From NCBI RefSeq assembly GCF_022271405.1, contig NZ_JAJNAL010000008.1, forward strand, positions 62,001-126,000: DNA of 64,000 nt, given 5' to 3'. The notes below the pieces were generated by a model. That model saw only the letters and a list, made by a program, of their open reading frames with translations. It was not told the DNA's origin and ran no database searches. Below, piece after piece: positions 281 to 42,853 of this stretch; the first letter of the stretch is position 1; each line of letters begins with the position of its first letter. Position numbers and translations under genes: made by a program. The DNA comes from Rhodopseudomonas infernalis (lineage in GTDB: Bacteria > Pseudomonadota > Alphaproteobacteria > Rhizobiales > Xanthobacteraceae).

Positions 281-2200
281 ATGACGTTATCTGCCCGCAA
301 TGCGCGGTTTCTGGTAGGTCTGATCGCGATTGCGCTCGCGGTCGTGCAGTTCATCCCGGTGTTCGCCAGCCGGGCGATCTACGAAATATCACTGCTCTCG
401 GCACATGTCGGCGCGACGACCGCCATCGCCTATCTGGTGGTAGGACTTCGCGGCCGACGCAAGGAAGGGGACGACGTCCCATTGTTCGACGTGCTGTGCG
501 CCGGCCTGGCACTGGCCTGCGCAAGCTATTTCTACATGCAGGGCGCGCGCGTGGCCGAGCGGATCGAGGGCGTCGATCCGGTCTACACGGCGGACTATGT
601 GTTCGGCATCGTCCTGATCCTGCTGCTGCTGGAAGCCGCGCGCCGAATTGCCGGCACCGTCCTGATGTCGCTGGCGGTGCTGTTCATTCTCTACGTTTTT
701 CTGGGGCCGTATCTGCCCGCTCCATTCGACAACAGGGGGTTGTCGCTGAAGCGGTTCGTCGATCTCCAGCTTCTCTCCGGACAGGGCATCTTCGGCACAC
801 CGATCTCGGCCTCCGCCAATATGGTGTTCTACTTCGTCATCGTCGGCGCGTTCCTGGAGCGCTCCGGTGCCGGCCGCCTGTTTGTCGATCTCGCCTATTG
901 CGCCACCGGCCGGGCTTGGGGCGGAGCCGCCAAGGCGAGTATCGTTTCGTCGGGCTTGTTCGGCACGGTGTCGGGCAGCGCAGTCGCCAACGTGCTGATG
1001 ACGGGCGTGGTCACCATTCCGTTGATGCGCCGCACCGGCTTCAGCCGCAATTTCGCCGGCGCGGTCGAAGCCACCGCCTCAACGGGGGGGCAACTCGCCC
1101 CGCCGGTGATGGGCGCGGCCGCTTTCATCCTGGCCGACATCGTCGGCGTGACCTATGGGACGGTCGCCTACGCCGCGATCGTGCCGGCGGTGCTGTTCTA
1201 TCTGTCGCTCTACGTGCTGGTGGACAGCTATTCGCGGCGCTACGGCCTCGTTCCGACCCGCGATCTTCCGCTCGCGGAATCTTGGCGGGGCTTGAAAGAG
1301 CGCTGGCATGTGCTGCTTCCGCTCGGCCTCATGGTCTATTTGCTGACGTCGCAATATTCACTGATGCGTGTCGGCGCTATCACGGCGGTTGCGATCATCA
1401 TCATCAGCTGGCTGCGCGCGACGACGCGGCTGATGCCCCGCGATATTTATGCCGCCCTCGTGGCAGGAGCACGGAGCGCCGCCGAGGTGGCGATTCCGTC
1501 CGCCGTTGCAGGGATCATCGTCGGCATCCTGGTTCACACCGGGATGGCGCTGCATCTGGAGCGCTGGCTGCTGGACATCGCCGGCAACTCGCTGTTCGTC
1601 TCGCTGATCGGCGCCATGCTGCTGACGTTGGTGTTCGGCATGGGCATGCCCACCGCCGCCGCCTATCTGGTGGCTGCCATTCTGGTCGGACCCGCATTGC
1701 AGAATCTCGGCGTGCCGGCGCTCGAGGCTCACCTGTTCATCTTCTATTTCGCGGTGCTGTCGATGGTGACGCCGCCCGTCGCGCTGGCCGCCTATGCGGC
1801 CGCCGGCGTCAGCGGTGGGTCGCTGTGGACCACGGGACTGATCGCGTTCGGTCTCGCCATCCCGGGCTTCATCATCCCGTTCGCGTTTGTCGCCGATCCG
1901 GCGCTCCTGCTGCAAGGCAGTGCGCTGGACAATGTCCGCACCGTCGGCACCGCCGCCATCGGCGTCTGCGCAACGGCGGCGGCCTCGGGAGGATTCGCGC
2001 TGGGACGGCTCTCATTGGTGATGCGGGGGATCCTGTTCGCCGGCGGCGTCCTGCTGATCGTGCCCAACCTCACAGCCGAGATTATCGGCTTCATTCTGCT
2101 GGCGCTGGTCGGACTGTGGCAGATGCGGCCCGGCATCCGCTCCCGCGCCGCGGTGCCGCCGGAGACGACGTCCCAACCTTCCGAAGGAACAGCTATCTGA
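281..2200 (+). CDS. TRAP transporter fused permease (TAXI type)
   Basis: A 639-residue polytopic inner-membrane protein with the fused small (DctQ-like, about residues 1-150) and large (DctM-like) permease parts found in TAXI-TRAP systems. Hydrophobic segments run through the whole length, and conserved stretches such as GTVSGSAVANV, TASTGGQLAPPVMGAAAF and FGMGMPTAAAYL are DctM hallmarks. It should drive uptake of an organic acid-like solute using an ion gradient with the binding protein just upstream. The stop overlaps the start of the amidohydrolase (TGATG), so the two are translationally coupled and the imported substrate may be what that enzyme hydrolyses. Confidence 0.92.
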   Translation: MTLSARNARFLVGLIAIALAVVQFIPVFASRAIYEISLLSAHVGATTAIAYLVVGLRGRRKEGDDVPLFDVLCAGLALACASYFYMQGARVAERIEGVDPVYTADYVFGIVLILLLLEAARRIAGTVLMSLAVLFILYVFLGPYLPAPFDNRGLSLKRFVDLQLLSGQGIFGTPISASANMVFYFVIVGAFLERSGAGRLFVDLAYCATGRAWGGAAKASIVSSGLFGTVSGSAVANVLMTGVVTIPLMRRTGFSRNFAGAVEATASTGGQLAPPVMGAAAFILADIVGVTYGTVAYAAIVPAVLFYLSLYVLVDSYSRRYGLVPTRDLPLAESWRGLKERWHVLLPLGLMVYLLTSQYSLMRVGAITAVAIIIISWLRATTRLMPRDIYAALVAGARSAAEVAIPSAVAGIIVGILVHTGMALHLERWLLDIAGNSLFVSLIGAMLLTLVFGMGMPTAAAYLVAAILVGPALQNLGVPALEAHLFIFYFAVLSMVTPPVALAAYAAAGVSGGSLWTTGLIAFGLAIPGFIIPFAFVADPALLLQGSALDNVRTVGTAAIGVCATAAASGGFALGRLSLVMRGILFAGGVLLIVPNLTAEIIGFILLALVGLWQMRPGIRSRAAVPPETTSQPSEGTAI

Positions 2201-3702
2201 TGCGTACGAAGATCGAGGCCGGCTGGATCGTCGGGCACGACAAGGGACGTCACACGCTATTGCGCGACGCCGTGCTGGTGTACGAGGGCAACCGCATCGT
2301 TTACGTCGGCCGCGCTTTCGAGGGCGATGTCGACCGCACGATCGACGCAAAGGGCAAGCTGGTGACGCCCGGCTTCATCGACACCCATGTGCACTCCGGT
2401 CATCGCGCGTCGCACCGGTTGATCTCCGACACCGGCCGCCCGATGTATTACGGCCAACCGTTTCTCGAAATCAGCGTGCCCAAGGAGGGCAAGACGGTCA
2501 GCGGTGATCCCCGCTATCTGAAGCATGGCGATCCGGGCGCCGAAGCAGCTTTCGCGCTTAACGCCACCTTCACGGTGGCCGAACTGCTACGCAACGGCGT
2601 CACCACCTTCGTCGAGTTCGGCAGTCAGCTGAAGGTGCAGGATGCGTTGCTGGCGGAAGTGACGCGGCTCGGCACCCGCGCCTATCTGGCGCCCGGTTTC
2701 GACTGCGGCCGCTGGGTCGGCGACGAGCAGGGCCGTTTGAAACGGATCCGCGACGATCAGCTCGGCCTCGACGGCCTCGACGTCGCGGTCGATTGGATCG
2801 CCCGCAATGACGGCGCTGCAGAGGGCCGCGTCCGGGGCATCCTGGTGCCGCGCGAGGTCGAGACCGCAAGCCTGGACCTGCTGCGACGGACCCGCGAACT
2901 CGCCGACGAACTCGGGCTGCCGATGGCCACCCATGCGGCCTACAGCGTGATCGAATTTCACGAGACCGTGCGCGAATACATGATGACGCCGATCGAGCTG
3001 CTCGACAGCCTTGGCATGCTGCGACCGACGCTCAACATCGGCCACGGCAATTTCATCTCCGACAATGCCAACCTCAATTTCGCCCGCAAGGACGATCTGC
3101 GCCTGATGGGCGACGCCGGTGTCAGCATCTCGCACTGCCCGATCAACATCGTGCGGCGCTCGCGCACGCTGGACAGCTGGATGCGATATCGCGCCGCGGG
3201 CGTAAACATCTCGATCGGCTCTGATACTTATCCGCGCGACATGATCATGAACATGCGGACGGCATCCTATCTGGGCAAGATCATGAGCGAGACCTACCTT
3301 GCCGCGACCGCCGGCGAGGCGCTCGAGGCTGCGACGCTGGGCGGCGCCATTTCGGTCGGCCGCGACGATCTCGGGCGTCTGGCTCCCGGTGCGGTCGCCG
3401 ACATCGTGATCATCAACCTGTCCGGCGGCAATTCGCTGCGCTATGGCCCGGTACGCGACCCGGTCAAGAGCCTGGTCGAGTGCGGCGTGGGGGACGATGT
3501 CGAGACGGTGATCGTCGATGGCGTGATCCGGATGGAGAATGGCATCATTCCCGGGATCGATTTCGCCGAGCTGAACCAGCGCGCTCAATCGGCCGGGGAG
3601 GCCGTCTGGGACAGCCTGCCGGAATGGGATCCGCTCGGCCGCTCCGCCGAGCAGGCATGTCCGTGGTGCTATCCGTCCACCTTCGAGTGCGAACCGGTCT
3701 GA
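2200..3702 (+). CDS. amidohydrolase family protein (TRZ/ATZ, cytosine-deaminase-like)
   Basis: A 500-residue metal-dependent hydrolase of the amidohydrolase superfamily. The metal ligands are visible in order: HVH in PGFIDTHVHSGH (about residue 67), a His in MATHAAY, a His in NIGHGNF and the Asp in ISIGSDTYPRD. The C-terminal part (GRLAPGAVADIVIINL, then VDGV) rebuilds the small beta-sandwich. Family members deaminate or dechlorinate ring compounds or hydrolyse C-N bonds; the substrate here is unknown. The start overlaps the permease stop. An open frame extends upstream inside the permease gene, but that part is a shadow. The C-terminus has an unusual CPWCYPS stretch. Confidence 0.85.
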   Translation: MRTKIEAGWIVGHDKGRHTLLRDAVLVYEGNRIVYVGRAFEGDVDRTIDAKGKLVTPGFIDTHVHSGHRASHRLISDTGRPMYYGQPFLEISVPKEGKTVSGDPRYLKHGDPGAEAAFALNATFTVAELLRNGVTTFVEFGSQLKVQDALLAEVTRLGTRAYLAPGFDCGRWVGDEQGRLKRIRDDQLGLDGLDVAVDWIARNDGAAEGRVRGILVPREVETASLDLLRRTRELADELGLPMATHAAYSVIEFHETVREYMMTPIELLDSLGMLRPTLNIGHGNFISDNANLNFARKDDLRLMGDAGVSISHCPINIVRRSRTLDSWMRYRAAGVNISIGSDTYPRDMIMNMRTASYLGKIMSETYLAATAGEALEAATLGGAISVGRDDLGRLAPGAVADIVIINLSGGNSLRYGPVRDPVKSLVECGVGDDVETVIVDGVIRMENGIIPGIDFAELNQRAQSAGEAVWDSLPEWDPLGRSAEQACPWCYPSTFECEPV

Positions 3703-3717
3703 GGGCGGCATGCGTCG

Positions 3718-4329
3718 ATGACAAATCCATCAAAGCCGATCATCGTCGGCATCAGCGGCGCGTCGGGCATCATTCTCGGGGTCCGTCTGCTCGACATTCT
3801 GGCAACGCTCGGGATCGAGAGTCATCTGGTGATGACGCGCTCTGCACAGGTGACGCTCGCCCATGAAACCGATCTGAAAGTGTCCGATATCCGTGCGCGG
3901 GCCAGCGTGGTTCACCAGGTCGACGATATCGGCGCCTCGATCTCCAGCGGATCGTTCCCCACGGCCGGAATGATCGTCGCTCCCTGCTCGATCCGCTCGA
4001 TGTCGGAGATCGCCAGCGGCGTGACCTCCTCGCTGCTGACGCGTGCGGCCGACGTGGTGCTGAAGGAGCGGCGGCGGCTCGTCCTCCTGGTGCGGGAGAC
4101 CCCGTTGCACCTCGGTCATCTGCGCACGATGGCCGAGTTGACCGAGATGGGCGCCGTCGTGATGCCTCCGGTGCCGGCGTTCTACATTCGGCCGCGGAGC
4201 ATCGACGAGATCGTCGACCATACGCTGAGCCGCGCGCTCGATTTGTTCGGAATCGATGCCGGCATTTCGCGGCGATGGACCGGATCGAAGATGGACGTCG
4301 CCGCAAAACCGGCCGATCGCGACGAATGA
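3718..4329 (+). CDS. UbiX/Pad1-family flavin prenyltransferase
   Basis: A 203-residue flavoprotein of the UbiX family, which attaches dimethylallyl to FMN to make prenylated FMN for UbiD-type decarboxylases. The glycine-rich FMN loop GISGASGIILGVRLLD is at residues 9-24. MIVAPCSIRSMSEIASG and the C-terminal MPPVPAFYIRPRSIDEIVDHT are family signatures. It lies 15 bp after the amidohydrolase and overlaps the next gene by ATGA. No UbiD homologue is in the window, so the client enzyme must be elsewhere. It may be a paralogue dedicated to aromatic catabolism rather than to ubiquinone. Confidence 0.9.
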   Translation: MTNPSKPIIVGISGASGIILGVRLLDILATLGIESHLVMTRSAQVTLAHETDLKVSDIRARASVVHQVDDIGASISSGSFPTAGMIVAPCSIRSMSEIASGVTSSLLTRAADVVLKERRRLVLLVRETPLHLGHLRTMAELTEMGAVVMPPVPAFYIRPRSIDEIVDHTLSRALDLFGIDAGISRRWTGSKMDVAAKPADRDE

Positions 4330-6792: not shown

Positions 6793-6937
6793 TAACCAGC
6801 GGCAGGAACCGCCATCCCGTTTTTCTTGTCGTCCACGAAACATGGGGACTGCGGCCGCAAATTCGGCCGCATTCCGGCGCCGGCGGGCGCCGCGTGAACG
6901 CCTTGGTAACGATATGGCAAGGCTTTCGTAACCAATC

Positions 6938-38530: not shown

Positions 38531-38538
38531 CACCAAGA
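38531..38538. repeat. target-site duplication, left copy
   Basis: CACCAAGA immediately before the left inverted repeat; the identical 8 bp follow the right inverted repeat at 42803-42810. Confidence 0.9.
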
Positions 38539-38559
38539 GGTAGTGTCTCATTTTGAAAA
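38539..38559 (+). repeat. left terminal inverted repeat
   Basis: GGTAGTGTCTCA-T-TTTGAAAA. It pairs with 42782-42802 at 20 of 21 positions. Confidence 0.92.
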
Positions 38560-38630
38560 TATTCCCACTTGACGGCCGGTTTCGCTGGTCCTGCCACCGT
38601 GGTATGCTTAGCGGAAAGCAGGAGGCGTAG

Positions 38631-38834
38631 ATGGGCGATAGGTGGGTTAGGTGTACAGGACACGGCGGGCGCGAAGTGCTCGTAAATTTAGGCAATGCGC
38701 TGACAATTCAGCGTTTATCAGGCGCGGCCGGAAACGACTTCACCCGCATCAATTTCAGCATCGATGGCGATGGCAAGAACGGCCTCTCTGTTCAGGAGCA
38801 TCCGGACGAAATCCTCAAACTGAAGGCTCTTTGA
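38631..38834 (+). CDS. 67-aa hypothetical protein, transposon cargo
   Basis: It starts MGDRWVRCTGHGGREVLVNL and contains RINFSIDGDGKNGLSVQEHP. The pattern looks like a small beta-rich protein; no family recognised. AGGAGG lies six bases before the ATG. Its stop overlaps the next start (TGATG). It is 72 bp inside the left end of the transposon. Confidence 0.65.
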   Translation: MGDRWVRCTGHGGREVLVNLGNALTIQRLSGAAGNDFTRINFSIDGDGKNGLSVQEHPDEILKLKAL

Positions 38835-39067
38835 TGCCCAGAGGCCCCAAAGGCGAAAAACGCCCCGCCGACGTGATCGGCGCCGCCGTCATGGTTGCTC
38901 GGATCGCCACCGGGGAGATCGAGGAAGGCACCGAGCCGGAAACCAAGGCGGCAGCAGCCTTGGGCAAACGGGGCGGCAAAGCCCGCGCAGCCAGCCTCAC
39001 CCCCGAACAGCGCTCGGAAATTGCCCGAGTCGCTGCCGAGGCAAGATGGAAAAAAGGCGACCGTTAA
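38834..39067 (+). CDS. 77-aa basic hypothetical protein, transposon cargo
   Basis: It starts MPRGPKGEKRPADVIGAAVM and ends PEQRSEIARVAAEARWKKGD. Related small basic proteins with PRGPKGEKRPADVIG and KRGGKARA..L..E.R.EIA..AA..RW motifs are widespread as accessory hypotheticals; nucleic-acid binding is plausible. It is translationally coupled to the 67-aa gene and convergent with the 159-aa gene, sharing the last bases. Confidence 0.75.
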   Translation: MPRGPKGEKRPADVIGAAVMVARIATGEIEEGTEPETKAAAALGKRGGKARAASLTPEQRSEIARVAAEARWKKGDR

Positions 39068-39543
39068 GCCGCCTTATCGTCCCTGTCATCCGCGCTCTTA
39101 CGCAGCTCAATATCGAACGCCAGATCCAGAACCATCTGAATCGGCTCTTCGCTTGGGTGCGCCGCGTTCCAGTGATCTTGATCGTAGGTGAGCATCACAC
39201 CGTCGCTGACCATCTGCTCACGTCGGTTGTAGAGGGACATGTGCATCTGGGGCCGCGTCGCTTCTTCAATATCGACAAAGAAGTGCAGTTGCGTCCCGCC
39301 GTGAGCCTGCTTTACGGCGTGATAGACGCGATATGGCTTCCCCGTCGTCTTGTCATAACTAATGACTTCGCGAGCGTCGTCCGAGAACTGTTTAGTGAGC
39401 AAGTCAATCGGGTCTGGCGGCGTAGGAAGCGGCCAACCGCGCTTCACTGCCCACAACGCAACCTTACGCATGTCAATTTCAGTAACCTTCGTCTCTTCCT
39501 TATAAGCTCGGATGAGACGCTGCCGTTCCTTACGTCTAGACAT
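39064..39543 (-). CDS. 159-aa hypothetical partner of XRE-ImmA
   Basis: The N-terminus is strongly basic (SRRKERQRLIRAYKEETKV), then WAVKRGWPLPTPPDPIDLLT, then a strand-rich part with YRVYHAVKQAHGGTQLHFFV and an acidic-basic C-terminus. I recognise no family. It follows the XRE-ImmA gene by 18 bp with a GGAG ribosome site, so they form an operon. Position suggests the effector or toxin of a two-gene module controlled by the fusion protein; that is inference only. Confidence 0.75.
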   Translation of the reverse strand: MSRRKERQRLIRAYKEETKVTEIDMRKVALWAVKRGWPLPTPPDPIDLLTKQFSDDAREVISYDKTTGKPYRVYHAVKQAHGGTQLHFFVDIEEATRPQMHMSLYNRREQMVSDGVMLTYDQDHWNAAHPSEEPIQMVLDLAFDIELRKSADDRDDKAA

Positions 39544-39561
39544 CGAGGTATCTCCGTTTGA

Positions 39562-40704
39562 TCAATTGCCTAGCGGCACAACATCTCCCCAACCGTCCGT
39601 GATCGCGTTAGGCGTCACGATCGAACGGATCTTCACGATATGATTGCCGAACCGGTCATATCGACCGATGCGGCGACGCAATTGCCCTGCAATCAAACCA
39701 GGGTGAACGTTGATCATCTTGGCAAAAGCCAAGATGTCTCGTTCGGAGAACATTGGAGCCTTTCTTGCAACGAAGGCTTCCAACATCTTTTGTGGTACGC
39801 AGAACTCAGCGGCAGCGGCATTTGCTACGCGTTCTTCCTCAGCAATGCCTTCGCAAGTGCCGGCACTATCGCCTTCCAAATCGGAGTCCAGCATCATGCC
39901 ACCGGCGCCATGCCGCTGGTCGACGTGCTCCAATTCGTGTCTTAGGACAAACCAAAAATTATCGATCCGATCGAAGCGCATCGAAAGCGCGATCACCGGA
40001 GACCTCTCGTTCAGCCAAAAACATACGCCGTCGATTTTTGCCGAGGGAAGAGATTCGACGACTAAAAAACGGATGCCGTGCTCGGCGAGTATGCGAGGCA
40101 CTTTCCGCGCTTCCTCGGCAGATGAGAGTAACGGCCTAAGTTTTGAAATTGCAGATTTGGCGGATGCTGGGGAATAGCGCGCGACAAGCATTTCGCTCGC
40201 GATCTTTCGAACCCGGTAAAGCCATGCGAGTTGCACAGGAGTAGCTTCAGTATTGACCTGTGTTCTTTTAGCCGCGTGCGGAAGTATCTCGATGTCTTCG
40301 ACACGGTTGACGCCGAAGAAGCGCACTAGCTCCGGCTGGACCATCGGGTCTTTGAGGTCTTTAGCGTTTATCCACCCCCGTTTAATCATTTCCGAAACAG
40401 GCAACTTGCCAAAGAGATGCGCGCGGGTCTCTCGTACCGGATCATGCCGTGCGGCCAGTCGGGCTTGGGATAGGTCATAGCTTTGCTGAAGCTCAAGGAA
40501 GTGCTCGGCGGGGACGCAGAACGCTTCCTCCAAGACGACGGCTAGATCGGCATCGATGGCACGTTTGCCGTTGACGATCCGAGAAACGGCCGTCTCATCC
40601 ATCCCTAGCACCAGCGACAAAATCCTGTTCGTCCATCCTTTTTCCTTCAAAAGGGCGTCGATAAGCTGATCCGGGGAGCGAAATTGGCTGGAATCATCCA
40701 TCAT
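39562..40704 (-). CDS. XRE helix-turn-helix / ImmA-IrrE metallopeptidase fusion
   Basis: A 380-residue protein. Residues 10-75 form a HigA-like helix-turn-helix (RILSLVLGMDETAVSRIVNG). Residues 190-340 form an ImmA/IrrE domain with the zinc-protease motif HELEH at 256-260 and a downstream acidic helix with EEERVANAAAAEFCVP. Such fusions act as antitoxins or as repressor-cleaving switches of mobile elements. The promoter spacer holds a perfect palindrome, so self-repression is likely. It starts ATG-ATG with no Shine-Dalgarno site and may be leaderless. Confidence 0.88.
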   Translation of the reverse strand: MMDDSSQFRSPDQLIDALLKEKGWTNRILSLVLGMDETAVSRIVNGKRAIDADLAVVLEEAFCVPAEHFLELQQSYDLSQARLAARHDPVRETRAHLFGKLPVSEMIKRGWINAKDLKDPMVQPELVRFFGVNRVEDIEILPHAAKRTQVNTEATPVQLAWLYRVRKIASEMLVARYSPASAKSAISKLRPLLSSAEEARKVPRILAEHGIRFLVVESLPSAKIDGVCFWLNERSPVIALSMRFDRIDNFWFVLRHELEHVDQRHGAGGMMLDSDLEGDSAGTCEGIAEEERVANAAAAEFCVPQKMLEAFVARKAPMFSERDILAFAKMINVHPGLIAGQLRRRIGRYDRFGNHIVKIRSIVTPNAITDGWGDVVPLGN

Positions 40705-40710
40705 GGCCGC

Positions 40711-40738
40711 AGCTTAGCCGGTTTGCGCAAACTTGCAA
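40711..40738 (-). promoter_or_regulatory. promoter of the XRE-ImmA operon
   Basis: Minus strand: -35 TTGCAA (40733-40738), 16-bp spacer, -10 TAAGCT (40711-40716). The expected start of transcription is about 40704, the first base of the ATG. Confidence 0.55.
40721..40732. promoter_or_regulatory. palindromic operator GTTTGCGCAAAC
   Basis: A perfect 12-bp palindrome lying entirely between the -35 and -10 of the XRE-ImmA promoter, followed by a half-repeat TTGCAAAC. It is the most likely binding site of the XRE domain. Confidence 0.6.
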
Positions 40739-40752
40739 ACTGAACTTTATGC

Positions 40753-40781
40753 TTGACATCAAGTATGAAAATTTCATTATG
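40753..40781 (+). promoter_or_regulatory. transposase promoter
   Basis: TTGACA (40753-40758), 17-bp spacer, ATTATG (40776-40781). The start of transcription would fall at about 40787, the A of the transposase ATG, so the message may be leaderless. Confidence 0.6.
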
Positions 40782-40786
40782 AACGC

Positions 40787-41659
40787 ATGAACAAATTGCC
40801 CCTGCAGAAGCGTGTCCAGATCCTCTCGATGCTTTGCGAGGGAAGCTCCATGCGGTCGATCAGCCGGGTGGCTGACGTGTCGATCAACACGGTTAGCAAG
40901 ATGCTGGTCGATGCCGGACAGGTCTGCGCCGCCTATCATGACCAGTATGTTCGCGGCCTGAACTGCAAGCGCGTCCAGTGCGATGAAATCTGGTCGTTTT
41001 GCTACTCGAAGGACAAGAACGTAAAGGCCGCCAAGGCCGCTCCGAAGGGCGCTGGCAACGTCTGGACTTGGACGGCGCTGGATGCCGACACCAAGCTCAT
41101 CGTGACATGGAGCGTCGGCGACCGCGATGCTGACAACGCGGCGAACATCATGGAGGACTTGCGTGACCGGGTTAAGACCCGGATGCAGCTGACGACTGAC
41201 GGACTCAAGGTATATCTGGAAGCCGTTCAGGAGGCTTTTGGCGTCGATGGCATCGACTACGCCCAACTGGTCGAGATTTACGGCGCGGCCCCTGGAAAAG
41301 GCGACGAGAGCCGCTACAGCCCCGCAGAGTGCATTGGCTCAAAGAAGGTGAAGGTTGAGGGTGAGCCGGATATCAAGCACGTCAGCACGTCTTATGTGGA
41401 ACGCCAGAACCTCAACATGCGGATGGGAATGCGCCGCTTCACCCGACTGACCAACGCCTTCTCAAAGAAGCTCGACAACCACTGCCACGCGCTGGCGCTC
41501 TACTTCATGTTTTACAATTTCTGCCGTATCCATAAGACGCTAAGAGTGACACCCGCAATGGCCGCAGGAGTTACGGAAAAGCTTTGGAATACGGAAGGCA
41601 TTGTTGCGCTAATCGATGCGCGGGACGAAAGAAAACGCACGCGCCAACCGGGCGCTTAA
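40787..41659 (+). CDS. IS1-family DDE transposase
   Basis: A 290-residue transposase. An N-terminal helix-turn-helix (MRSISRVADVSINTVSKMLV) precedes the InsB-like catalytic core: first acid in KRVQCDEIWSF, second in LTTDGLKVY, third in SYVERQNLNMRM, the last resembling the IS1 block RIERHNLNLR. All three are present, so it looks active. It is encoded in one frame without the InsA/InsB frameshift of classical IS1. Its stop overlaps that of the convergent Abi gene. Confidence 0.9.
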   Translation: MNKLPLQKRVQILSMLCEGSSMRSISRVADVSINTVSKMLVDAGQVCAAYHDQYVRGLNCKRVQCDEIWSFCYSKDKNVKAAKAAPKGAGNVWTWTALDADTKLIVTWSVGDRDADNAANIMEDLRDRVKTRMQLTTDGLKVYLEAVQEAFGVDGIDYAQLVEIYGAAPGKGDESRYSPAECIGSKKVKVEGEPDIKHVSTSYVERQNLNMRMGMRRFTRLTNAFSKKLDNHCHALALYFMFYNFCRIHKTLRVTPAMAAGVTEKLWNTEGIVALIDARDERKRTRQPGA

Positions 41660-42636
41660 GGCGCAAGGCGCCATTCTTTTCTCTGTTTCCAGTCCTCGGG
41701 AAATCCCATAGACGTTAGGGGAATACGCGGGTGTGAATCGATGATCTTTCCAAGGGCTTCTGCCCAATGGTTGTTAGACCATATCTTTTGCAAAATGATC
41801 TGCATTGCTAGTAGTACCGAATAAATACGGTCATTCTGACCGTTAAACTGCACTCTACGAGCATTTGGAATTGTTAGCTTAATCGTTAAAACGCGGTTCC
41901 AGAGCCTCGAATGATGAGCACAAAGGTTTCTGACATATGAGATTGCGTGCAGCCAAGAACTTAGAATCTGGTGGTTGAGCCCAAACTTTCTGCAGACATC
42001 GCCGTATTCGGGGTGCTTTAGAAACTTGAAGCACTGAGAGATTGATCCAAATGATATTACCTCAAATGTCATCCAGCACGGCGGCAACTCCGGGCGATCG
42101 TATGAGTTGTAATAGTGCTTGATAAAGACATCACGTCTTGAAGCTTGGTTATGGCCAATTTGCCGTTTTAAATCTGCGATGAAATCGGCGTGCCATGCAT
42201 CAAGGTCAAATCGCTCATGCCGATGATAGAAGCCCGGTCTTCCGAATTTAGTTTTGTCCATGTACCAGTGCGGGCCATGTCTTGACGCGACCGAATTCGA
42301 TATAGCGGCGCGGGCAGCTATCTCAATTTTTTCAACAGCCTCTAGCACCAACATCCGAAGCTTGCGGTCGAAAATATATCTGTCGTGGACCAACTCAAAT
42401 GTCGTGCCCGGGTGGTAATACGCCGAACCGCCGTTAAGACCGGATTTGAAGGGGTGCAGATAGCCAGAGAACCTATAATAGCCAATGTGCTGTAAGTGGT
42501 CGAAGGAATCTGCCCAATTCTCGAAAACCAAGCCTCGGCTAGCGAGAAGTATGGCCTGCTCTTCCAATCCAAGAGCGGGCTTCGCAAACGTAATGCGCGC
42601 CAAAGTTGCGGCCCCAGACAAGGAAAACCCCACCAT
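41656..42636 (-). CDS. Abi_2 (AbiD/AbiF-like) HEPN abortive-infection protein
   Basis: A 326-residue protein with Abi_2 hallmarks: LASRGLVFENWADSFDHLQH, IGYYRFSGYLHPF, then EKIEIAARAAIS, and near the C-terminus RNLCAHHSRLWNR. The R-x4-H element in RNLCAHH (about residues 236-242) is the HEPN RNase-type motif. Relatives abort phage infection, some by cutting RNA. The ATG at 42636 with GGAAG upstream is preferred over a TTG at 42648. AT-rich relative to recA. It lies at the right end of the transposon. Confidence 0.88.
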   Translation of the reverse strand: MVGFSLSGAATLARITFAKPALGLEEQAILLASRGLVFENWADSFDHLQHIGYYRFSGYLHPFKSGLNGGSAYYHPGTTFELVHDRYIFDRKLRMLVLEAVEKIEIAARAAISNSVASRHGPHWYMDKTKFGRPGFYHRHERFDLDAWHADFIADLKRQIGHNQASRRDVFIKHYYNSYDRPELPPCWMTFEVISFGSISQCFKFLKHPEYGDVCRKFGLNHQILSSWLHAISYVRNLCAHHSRLWNRVLTIKLTIPNARRVQFNGQNDRIYSVLLAMQIILQKIWSNNHWAEALGKIIDSHPRIPLTSMGFPEDWKQRKEWRLAP

Positions 42637-42737
42637 ATGCGCTTCCAAGGAGAGGCGGGCGGGGTATTATTGATGGCGAACGTATAGTGCATGGGTGAAA
42701 AGTCAATTACTGAAGGTCAATCAATTGTAGAAAATCC

Positions 42738-42762
42738 GTTGTACGGGGGATGCCCGTACAAC
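42738..42762 (-). other. 10-bp perfect hairpin near the right transposon end
   Basis: GTTGTACGGG, a 5-base loop, CCCGTACAAC, 20 bp inside the right inverted repeat and about 100 bp upstream of the Abi start. It could block transcription entering from outside, or be a transposase-recognition structure. Confidence 0.55.
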
Positions 42763-42781
42763 CCCTAAGCAAAAAGTTCAG

Positions 42782-42802
42782 TTTTCAAAGTGAGACACTA
42801 CC
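42782..42802 (-). repeat. right terminal inverted repeat
   Basis: It reads GGTAGTGTCTCA-C-TTTGAAAA on the minus strand and differs from the left end at one position. Confidence 0.92.
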
Positions 42803-42810
42803 CACCAAGA
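42803..42810. repeat. target-site duplication, right copy
   Basis: CACCAAGA directly after the right inverted repeat, identical to 38531-38538. Confidence 0.9.
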
Positions 42811-42824
42811 ATGAGAAGAACATA

Positions 42825-42853
42825 TTGCGAACACGGAACGAACCGTGTACATT
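42825..42853 (+). promoter_or_regulatory. recA promoter
   Basis: -35 TTGCGA (42825-42830), 17-bp spacer, -10 TACATT (42848-42853). It overlaps the LexA box and starts 22 bp after the transposon end. Confidence 0.6.
42829..42843 (-). promoter_or_regulatory. LexA (SOS) box of recA
   Basis: GAAC-ACGGAAC-GAAC, the reverse complement of the alphaproteobacterial LexA consensus GTTC-N7-GTTC. It lies in the promoter spacer, the expected place for repression. Confidence 0.8.

What the first reader, a model, noticed from the sequence alone, without database searches (positions are those of the whole stretch)
38539..42802. Large IS1-type transposon carrying a candidate defence cargo
Seen: 21-bp inverted ends matching at 20 of 21 positions, a perfect 8-bp duplication CACCAAGA, one intact DDE transposase, and five further genes, all inside 4,264 bp. 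Known: IS1-family members are normally under 1 kb, start GGT and make 8-9 bp duplications. Inference: this is a self-mobile carrier whose cargo (XRE-ImmA fusion, unknown partner, Abi_2/HEPN) serves host or element defence. Near-identical ends suggest a recent insertion.
Basis: partly seen in the sequence, partly recalled or inferred. Interest (0 to 1): 0.88.

Follow-up and report, generated by a model that had tools for sequence, protein, structure and literature searches.

The report
Compact transposon with swappable defence cargo
A bacterial jumping gene carries toxin-antitoxin-like and anti-virus-like genes beside the gene that moves it, and its relatives in many other bacteria keep the same few core parts while the passenger genes between them differ from copy to copy.

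Summary
It belongs to a wide, mostly alphaproteobacterial group of IS1-related elements. In 107 elements with ends and duplication, four blocks recur: left end with a hairpin leader, a 77-aa 'KGG' protein (97 of 107), the transposase, and the right end. Between them lie three slots whose content is mostly unrelated even between close relatives; the shortest element is 1.8 kb. Cargo is enriched for toxin-antitoxin/defence genes: RosmerTA antitoxin models match 17 of 121 cargo ORFs against 0 of 121 flank ORFs. The window's XRE-M78 + 159-aa pair is scattered over the transposase tree (7 changes for 7 rows; 4 forced by well-supported branches), and in 9 of 9 genomes of the order where the 159-aa protein was found (the window's own included) a 77-aa homologue lies beside it. 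Mobility as a unit is supported by identical 3.3-kb copies at two sites in one Sphingopyxis chromosome and an uninterrupted site in a sister species. Defence function is inferred. Nearly identical ends do not date the insertion.

The parts
38531..38538 (.). left copy of the 8-bp target duplication CACCAAGA
38539..38559 (+). left terminal inverted repeat (IRL)
   Evidence: GGTA starts 96 of 107 elements
38603..38625 (+). conserved leader TATGCTTAGCGGAAAGCAGGAGG: short hairpin (TGCTT/AAGCA) then a ribosome-binding-like AGGAGG
   Evidence: ATGCTTAGCG with at most 1 mismatch in nt 21-140 of 49 of 107 elements (36 exact), 0 after shuffling; elsewhere in the elements 19 of 107 with at most 1 mismatch, 2 exact
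38631..38834 (+). slot-0 passenger ORF, 67 aa, unknown; stop overlaps the start of the next gene
   Evidence: no Pfam, NCBIfam, PADLOC or PHROG match; no homologue by tblastn in the other elements
38834..39067 (+). core gene: 77-aa basic KGG protein; predicted three helices
   Evidence: homologue in 97 of 107 elements; 15 invariant residues in 58 rows; model mean pLDDT 82.6
39064..39543 (-). slot-A cargo: 159-aa partner of the XRE-M78 protein (putative toxin or cofactor)
   Evidence: in 7 of 107 elements, each time beside a divergent M78 gene; 9 of 397 genomes of the order (own included), all 9 beside M78 and 77-aa homologues
39562..40704 (-). slot-A cargo: XRE HTH + ImmA/IrrE-type M78 metallopeptidase fusion (HELEH), 380 aa
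   Evidence: Pfam HTH_3 and Peptidase_M78; PADLOC PD-Lambda-2_B E 1.7e-43
40721..40732 (.). palindrome GTTTGCGCAAAC in the divergent promoter region: candidate XRE operator
   Evidence: sequence; inference
40753..40780 (+). promoter-like TTGACA-16-CATTAT; start of transcription would fall on the transposase ATG (leaderless)
   Evidence: 3 such sites found in the region, 2.2 expected by chance; weak-to-moderate cTtgac consensus at this distance in 105 elements
40787..41659 (+). core gene: IS1-related DDE transposase, 290 aa, D66/D138/E205
   Evidence: Pfam DDE_Tnp_IS1 31.4 bits (cut-off 24.1); D66 and D138 in 107 of 107, E205 in 105 of 107
41656..42648 (-). slot-B cargo: Abi_2/AbiD-like protein, 330 aa, with RNLCAH (RX4H) HEPN-type motif
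   Evidence: Pfam Abi_2 188 bits; PADLOC AbiD E 4.1e-71; PHROG abortive infection E 1e-54
42738..42762 (-). 10-bp-stem hairpin next to the right end; may stop transcripts entering from the recA side
   Evidence: 8 terminator-like sites found, 5.0 expected by chance
42782..42802 (-). right terminal inverted repeat (IRR)
42803..42810 (.). right copy of the 8-bp target duplication
42818..42832 (+). GAAC-N7-GAAC, LexA-type SOS box of recA (motif recalled), 7 bp beyond the duplication; host sequence
   Evidence: sequence; same bases in the sister species L083
42920..44014 (+). recA, host gene, not part of the element
   Evidence: ORF; named from its sequence

Best explanation
A cargo-carrying IS1-related transposon. 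Shown from sequence: IRL, leader, 77-aa KGG protein, transposase and IRR form the core; cargo sits in slot 0 (leader to 77-aa gene), slot A (77-aa gene to transposase) and slot B (transposase to IRR), and slot contents differ independently of the core. Inferred: the transposase moves everything between the ends by DDE chemistry and makes the 8-bp duplication; the 77-aa protein is an accessory or regulator of transposition or expression; cargo pays for the element's upkeep. In this copy the XRE-M78/159-aa pair acts as a RosmerTA- or PD-lambda-2-like toxin-antitoxin in which the M78 protein senses infection or stress and frees a toxic activity, and Abi_2 is a HEPN-type abortive-infection RNase. 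The insertion lies just upstream of the recA SOS promoter and leaves it whole.
For: Ends and duplication (controls). Transposase with invariant DDE residues. Uninterrupted site in the sister genome G013; none of the 15 same-genus genomes held has the transposase. Identical 3,316-bp element at two places in the Sphingopyxis sp. PET50 chromosome with different duplications, CGGAGCCG and CAATGCGC. 77-aa homologue in 97 of 107 elements. Nearest relative L002 (Afipia; transposase 85%) shares with the window element only nt 1-86, 296-518, 2203-3090 and 4215-4264; 24 of the 28 closest pairs printed share only such blocks. Cargo: M78 with HExxH in 29 of 107 elements; PADLOC RmrA 17 of 121 cargo ORFs against 0 of 121 flank ORFs, Fisher p 8e-6; L013 carries a plain RosmerTA pair. 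Cargo shuffled relative to the transposase tree: c159+M78 needs 7 changes for 7 rows (4 forced by starred branches), M78 of any kind 26 changes against 25.8 by shuffling.
Against: No function was tested. The window's XRE-M78 fits PD-Lambda-2_B (1.7e-43) and only weakly RmrA (6.1e-6), its 159-aa partner matches no defence model and no solved fold (weak model, pLDDT 70). Many cargo ORFs have no assigned function, and the ORF calls are mechanical. The uninterrupted site is in another species whose flanks are 78% identical, so a single CACCAAGA is not seen there. 10 of 107 elements show no 77-aa homologue at E 1e-3. Not every comparison shows exchange: the window element and L155 are collinear over 77-aa gene, cargo and transposase at 65% DNA identity, and 4 of the 28 closest pairs share DNA beyond the blocks. 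15 of 40 strong 77-aa matches in the family had no listed transposase match within 6 kb.
Confidence: 0.82

Rival explanations
1. The XRE-M78 protein is a regulator of the element (ImmR/ImmA-like switch that represses the divergent transposase promoter and is relieved by DNA damage), not a defence module.
For: It is transcribed divergently from the transposase over 82 bp holding a palindrome GTTTGCGCAAAC and a transposase promoter-like site; ImmA acts on the repressor ImmR of a conjugative transposon (PMC10440598, passages).
Against: Only 29 of 107 elements have an M78 gene, 16 of them co-directional with the transposase; the others fill the slot with other genes, so it is not needed to move. 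A sister element, L013, carries a plain RmrT-RmrA pair there.
Confidence: 0.2
2. The cargo is addiction: toxin-antitoxin-like modules that punish loss of the element, with phage protection incidental.
For: RosmerTA-type toxin-antitoxin genes are the most frequent recognised cargo.
Against: The window's Abi_2 and the NYN/HEC-09 gene of L006 come without a recognised antidote. The two roles do not exclude each other.
Confidence: 0.3
3. A chance grouping: an ordinary short IS that landed beside unrelated genes, with false outer ends.
For: IS1 members are normally near 1 kb (recalled).
Against: Ends plus duplication in 109 of 178 transposase places against 0 of 178 in both controls; G+C 53.6% inside against 64.0% for the window (63.2% and 58.3% in the 3-kb flanks); identical whole copies at two sites in a relative.
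Confidence: 0.01

Closest known systems
IS1 family (NCBIfam NF033558, Pfam PF03400)
   Same: DDE transposase with the IS1 C-terminal region, ends beginning GGT, 8-bp duplication; four of the eight plasmid relatives are annotated 'IS1 family transposase'
   Different: single 290-aa ORF without frameshift, NCBIfam score 74.3 below its cut-off 100, near-universal 77-aa partner gene, 4.3 kb with cargo. From memory ISfinder lists an ISMhu11 subgroup with sizes up to about 4.6 kb; this could not be checked (no paper in the library names it)
Cargo-carrying insertion sequences ('transporter IS', recalled) and Tn7-like transposons rich in defence cargo (PMC8649781, abstract and outline seen)
   Same: one transposition core with exchangeable passengers, among them defence and toxin-antitoxin genes
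   Different: a few kb, three fixed slots around one transposase and one small protein, no Tn7-type targeting proteins recognised
RosmerTA (RmrT/RmrA; PMC10440598, passages)
   Same: XRE-M78 protein with a partner gene beside it; true RosmerTA occurs in a sister element (L013)
   Different: partner here is a 159-aa protein without RmrT similarity, and the M78 gene comes first
PD-lambda-2 (PMC9519451, passages)
   Same: component B, HigA-like HTH fused to a peptidase, E 1.7e-43
   Different: no match to A or C components among the element's proteins
AbiD / Abi_2 abortive infection
   Same: Abi_2 domain over residues 51-251, HEPN-type RX4H
   Different: carried in slot B of a transposon; no other element here has a homologue by tblastn

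Membership tests
IS1 family | IS1-type DDE transposase | tested here: met
   PF03400 31.4 bits above cut-off 24.1; D66, D138, E205 conserved
IS1 family | NCBIfam IS1 equivalog cut-off | tested here: not met
   NF033558 74.3 bits, cut-off 100; IS1595 model 27.9, cut-off 75
IS1 family | inverted ends starting GGT, 8-9 bp duplication (recalled) | tested here: met
IS1 family | two frames joined by a programmed frameshift (recalled; single-frame members are also recalled) | tested here: not met
   one open frame of 290 aa
IS1 family | length about 0.7-1.2 kb without passengers (recalled) | tested here: not met
   4,264 bp; the 107 elements span 1,791-6,552 bp
RosmerTA | M78-domain antitoxin | tested here: inconclusive
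   RmrA models E 6.1e-6 at best; PD-Lambda-2_B E 1.7e-43
RosmerTA | RmrT toxin beside it | tested here: not met
   159-aa partner has no PADLOC match at E 0.1; RmrTs are diverse, so a new one is not excluded
RosmerTA | toxicity, neutralisation, phage protection | not testable with these tools
   bench work
PD-lambda-2 | three components A, B, C | tested here: not met
   only B matched among the six element proteins
AbiD/Abi_2 | Abi_2 domain above the gathering score | tested here: met
   188.1 bits, cut-off 25.6
AbiD/Abi_2 | HEPN R-X4-6-H motif | tested here: met
   RNLCAH read directly from the translation; motif recalled
cargo-carrying transposon | whole unit including cargo moves | tested here: met
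   met in the family, not in this copy: identical 3,316-bp element at two sites with different duplications in Sphingopyxis sp. PET50; the window's genome has one copy

The most novel reading that the evidence does not exclude
These elements are a dedicated cassette-swapping system: conserved core blocks (left leader, 77-aa gene, transposase, right end) serve as fixed joints through which three cargo slots are exchanged, and the 77-aa KGG protein takes part in that exchange or in making cargo-laden elements transposable. The element family would then be a very small, self-moving counterpart of a defence-island hotspot and a source of unknown defence genes, the 159-aa/XRE-M78 pair among them.
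Probability: 0.2. Interest if true: 0.85.

Novelty: new variant of a known kind. Interest (0 to 1): 0.62.

Why it matters
Cargo IS elements and defence-rich transposons are known, but a 2-6 kb element with a fixed core, a near-universal small partner protein and three cargo slots that turn over independently of the transposase did not turn up in the literature searches made here. Its ends can be found by pattern, so the slots can be read off exactly. That gives a clean way to mine for new toxin-antitoxin and anti-phage genes, and a small system in which to ask how transposons trade cargo and whether defence genes pay for a transposon's stay.

Tried and rejected
Rejected: short IS beside unrelated genes (controls). 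Rejected: near-identical ends as a sign of recent insertion. Considered and left open: M78 as an element regulator; addiction instead of defence. Dropped while checking: an Xre/RES pair on an Acidiphilium plasmid (L136) as cargo; the ends found stop at 6900, so the pair lies outside that element. Led nowhere: structure of the 159-aa protein (pLDDT 70; no PDB match at E 0.001, best 0.42) and of the 77-aa protein (no PDB match); 159-aa homologues in viral contigs (none confirmed); transposase in the phage collection (1 distant match in 50,697 records); plasmids (8 of 72,556 records, 5 of them nearly full length); literature on this group (nothing on point in the listings, which for 23, 24 and 81 show at most 20 papers). 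The alignments of the site were poor for distant relatives; one search used the wrong stretch of L083, and only the L083 row is used here (rows L085 and L087 had been taken on the wrong strand).

Limits of the counts. The 107 elements were made distinct by exact sequence; L148 and L149 differ by one base, so they are probably one insertion seen twice. The 121 cargo ORFs of A3 are mechanical ORFs of at least 110 aa from 64 elements, the window's left out; 4 of the 121 were dropped and 4 trimmed ones (L009, L059, L069, L123) put in before any scan. The set scans tally families, not members, and show 25 families at most, so the number of cargo ORFs with any defence match is not known. The tree is the quick kind, with 46 of 103 inner branches under 80.
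Full report
Check. The ends 38539-38559 and 42782-42802 match at 20 of 21 positions and are flanked by CACCAAGA on both sides. The element is 4,264 bp, G+C 53.6% against 64.0% for the window and 63.2% and 58.3% for the 3-kb flanks. The transposase (40787-41659, 290 aa) is open; Pfam gives DDE_Tnp_IS1 31.4 bits over a cut-off of 24.1, NCBIfam IS1 74.3 bits under its cut-off of 100. The genome has one copy of it.

Host and site. None of the 15 same-genus genomes has the transposase; 77 of 296 genomes of the family have some match, many partial. With the two flanks joined as query, sister genome G013 matches over positions 8-451 in one piece of 446 bp at 78% identity, so its site is uninterrupted. 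At that divergence the target octamer itself is not preserved. The element sits upstream of recA: the right duplication ends 7 bp before GAAC-N7-GAAC (42818-42832), by recalled consensus an alphaproteobacterial LexA box, and the presumed recA -35/-10 (TTGCGA/TACATT, read by eye) lies beyond it, so the recA control region is whole. Afipia sp. Root123D2, with the closest transposase (85%), appears to be genome G270 of the same family: L002 and L107 hold an identical element.

A family of elements. The transposase has at least 548 relatives in the genome collection (80 kept) and 72 loci in viral contigs. I looked around each transposase for GG-ends next to a perfect short repeat. 107 distinct elements passed; 65 begin GGTAGTGTCTCA. 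Controls gave 0 of 178 against 109 of 178. In a sample of 398 genomes of the phylum 15 had a match at E 1e-40, all in the window's class; relatives with ends and duplication also occur in metagenome bins titled Nitrospirales and Deltaproteobacteria (L058, L067, L078). Two identical 3,316-bp elements lie in one Sphingopyxis chromosome with different duplications: the unit moves with its cargo.

Anatomy. Of the 28 pairs with the most similar transposase genes (82-100%), 24 share only short blocks: the left end to about nt 90, the 77-aa gene, the transposase with 20-50 bp before it, and the right end (not every block reaches the threshold in every pair). The four others are L148/L149 (one base apart) and L013/L020, L185/L188, L185/L189, which share some DNA beyond. 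For the window against L002 the blocks are 1-86, 296-518, 2203-3090 and 4215-4264 of the element. Against L155, which has the same cargo, the window element is collinear at 65% from 458 to 3034. The left block holds a leader with a small hairpin, TATGCTTAGCGnnAAGCAT, before a ribosome-binding-like GGAGG: ATGCTTAGCG with at most one mismatch in nt 21-140 of 49 of 107 elements, 36 exact, none after shuffling; elsewhere in the elements 19 and 2. The 77-aa protein (MPRGPKGEKRPADVIG...GGKARA...RW) is found in 97 of 107; 15 residues are invariant in 58 rows and three helices are predicted at mean pLDDT 82.6. A Mesorhizobium copy is annotated histone H1. In L046, L073 and L162 the match is inverted. 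Of 77 elements with a full forward copy, 13 have it within about 110 bp of the left end; in the other 64 more DNA lies between (slot 0), and among the first 65 elements 44 have a small ORF that ends at or near its start. Slot A, between the 77-aa gene and the transposase, is not empty in any of these 77 (369-2,345 bp). Slot B: in 60 of 105 elements the transposase stop is 124 bp or more from the tip; in the other 45 it is nearer, in 38 of them 9 bp from the tip, inside the inverted repeat. The shortest element is 1,791 bp (L206, a distant one without a 77-aa match), so no bare IS form was seen.

Cargo. 121 cargo ORFs of 64 other elements were scanned as one set, with 121 length-matched ORFs from the flanks of the same group of loci as control. 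PADLOC: cargo matched 263 models, led by RmrA of RosmerTA (17 of 121); flanks matched 8 models, none in more than 2 ORFs and none RmrA (Fisher p 8e-6). Pfam: HTH_3 in 21, M78 in 17, P63C in 8, NYN in 5, PemK in 2; the listed flank matches were mostly housekeeping families, none in more than 3 ORFs, though only 25 of 136 are shown. Single scans of chosen proteins show a plain RosmerTA pair in L013 (RmrT 9.5e-29, RmrA 5.7e-134), P63C proteins, AAA/STAND-like ATPases and a NYN/HEC-09 nuclease, while others, such as the slot-A proteins of L006 and L041, match nothing. By profile 29 of 107 elements carry XRE-M78, all 29 with HExxH.

The window's own cargo. XRE-M78 (39562-40704, HELEH) fits PD-Lambda-2_B, E 1.7e-43. 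In PD-lambda-2 the corresponding protein is toxic when overexpressed alone and is rescued by A (PMC9519451, passages); in RosmerTA the M78 protein is the antitoxin of varied toxins (PMC10440598, passages). Which way round it works here is open. I found no relative of the 159-aa partner outside these elements: 7 of 107 elements have it, each time next to a divergent M78 gene; among 397 genomes of the order 9 have it, the window's own included, and all 9 have 77-aa and M78 homologues beside it, 8 of them the transposase too. Of the 8 other loci, 4 showed both ends with a duplication. It therefore looks element-bound. Slot B holds an Abi_2/AbiD protein (188 bits, PADLOC 4.1e-71) with RNLCAH.

Exchange. 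On a transposase tree (quick method, 46 of 103 inner branches weak) the c159+M78 cargo needs 7 changes for 7 rows, of which starred branches force 4; M78 of any kind needs 26 changes against 25.8 for shuffled labels. Cargo and core thus have largely separate histories. How cargo is exchanged is not shown; recombination through the shared core blocks is the simplest inference.

Stray 77-aa genes. Of 40 strong matches in 296 family genomes, 25 lie within 6 kb of a listed transposase match. Of the 15 others, fetched, several end near contig ends or look like remnants, and one, L221:3781-5587, is a 1,807-bp element with ends and duplication but no transposase. Five full-length transposases had no 77-aa match nearby; two or more of these contigs are short or broken.

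Expression. The divergent gap between XRE-M78 and the transposase (82 bp, 42.7% G+C) holds GTTTGCGCAAAC, a candidate XRE operator, and TTGACA-16-CATTAT, which would start transcription on the transposase ATG. Such promoter-like sites are no more frequent in the region than expected (3 found, 2.2 by chance), but a cTtgac consensus of weak to moderate strength stands at this distance in 105 elements, so a leaderless transposase transcript is plausible.

Verdict. Real, mobile by comparative evidence, defence cargo likely but unproven. It is a new variant of a known kind, the cargo-carrying IS, with an unusually regular core-and-slot design. No paper describing this group turned up in the listings, in a library without most subscription journals; ISfinder was not available.

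Noticed in passing
window 40753-40787: The transposase promoter-like site would start transcription on the ATG itself; a cTtgac consensus stands at this distance in the family, so a leaderless transposase mRNA is predicted.
   Followed up: partly
L221:3781-5587: A 1,807-bp element with matching ends (18 of 20), 8-bp duplication GAAGAACG and a 77-aa homologue but no transposase, in a genome (G027) that has a full-length transposase elsewhere: a likely non-autonomous derivative.
   Followed up: partly
38 of the 45 elements whose transposase stop lies near the right tip: The transposase stop codon lies inside the right inverted repeat, 9 bp from the tip, so the end sequence is also coding.
   Followed up: partly
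L013:8210-9954: A complete RosmerTA pair (RmrT and RmrA) as slot-A cargo.
   Followed up: no
L136:6883-7721: RES-domain and Xre antitoxin genes just after the transposase on an Acidiphilium plasmid; the ends found stop at 6900, so this pair lies outside that element.
   Followed up: no
L003, L022, L046, L049 slot A: P63C-domain proteins of 339-365 aa recur as slot-A cargo; function unknown.
   Followed up: no
window 42738-42762: A hairpin with a 10-bp stem about 20 bp inside the right inverted repeat, oriented as a terminator for transcripts entering from the recA side.
   Followed up: no
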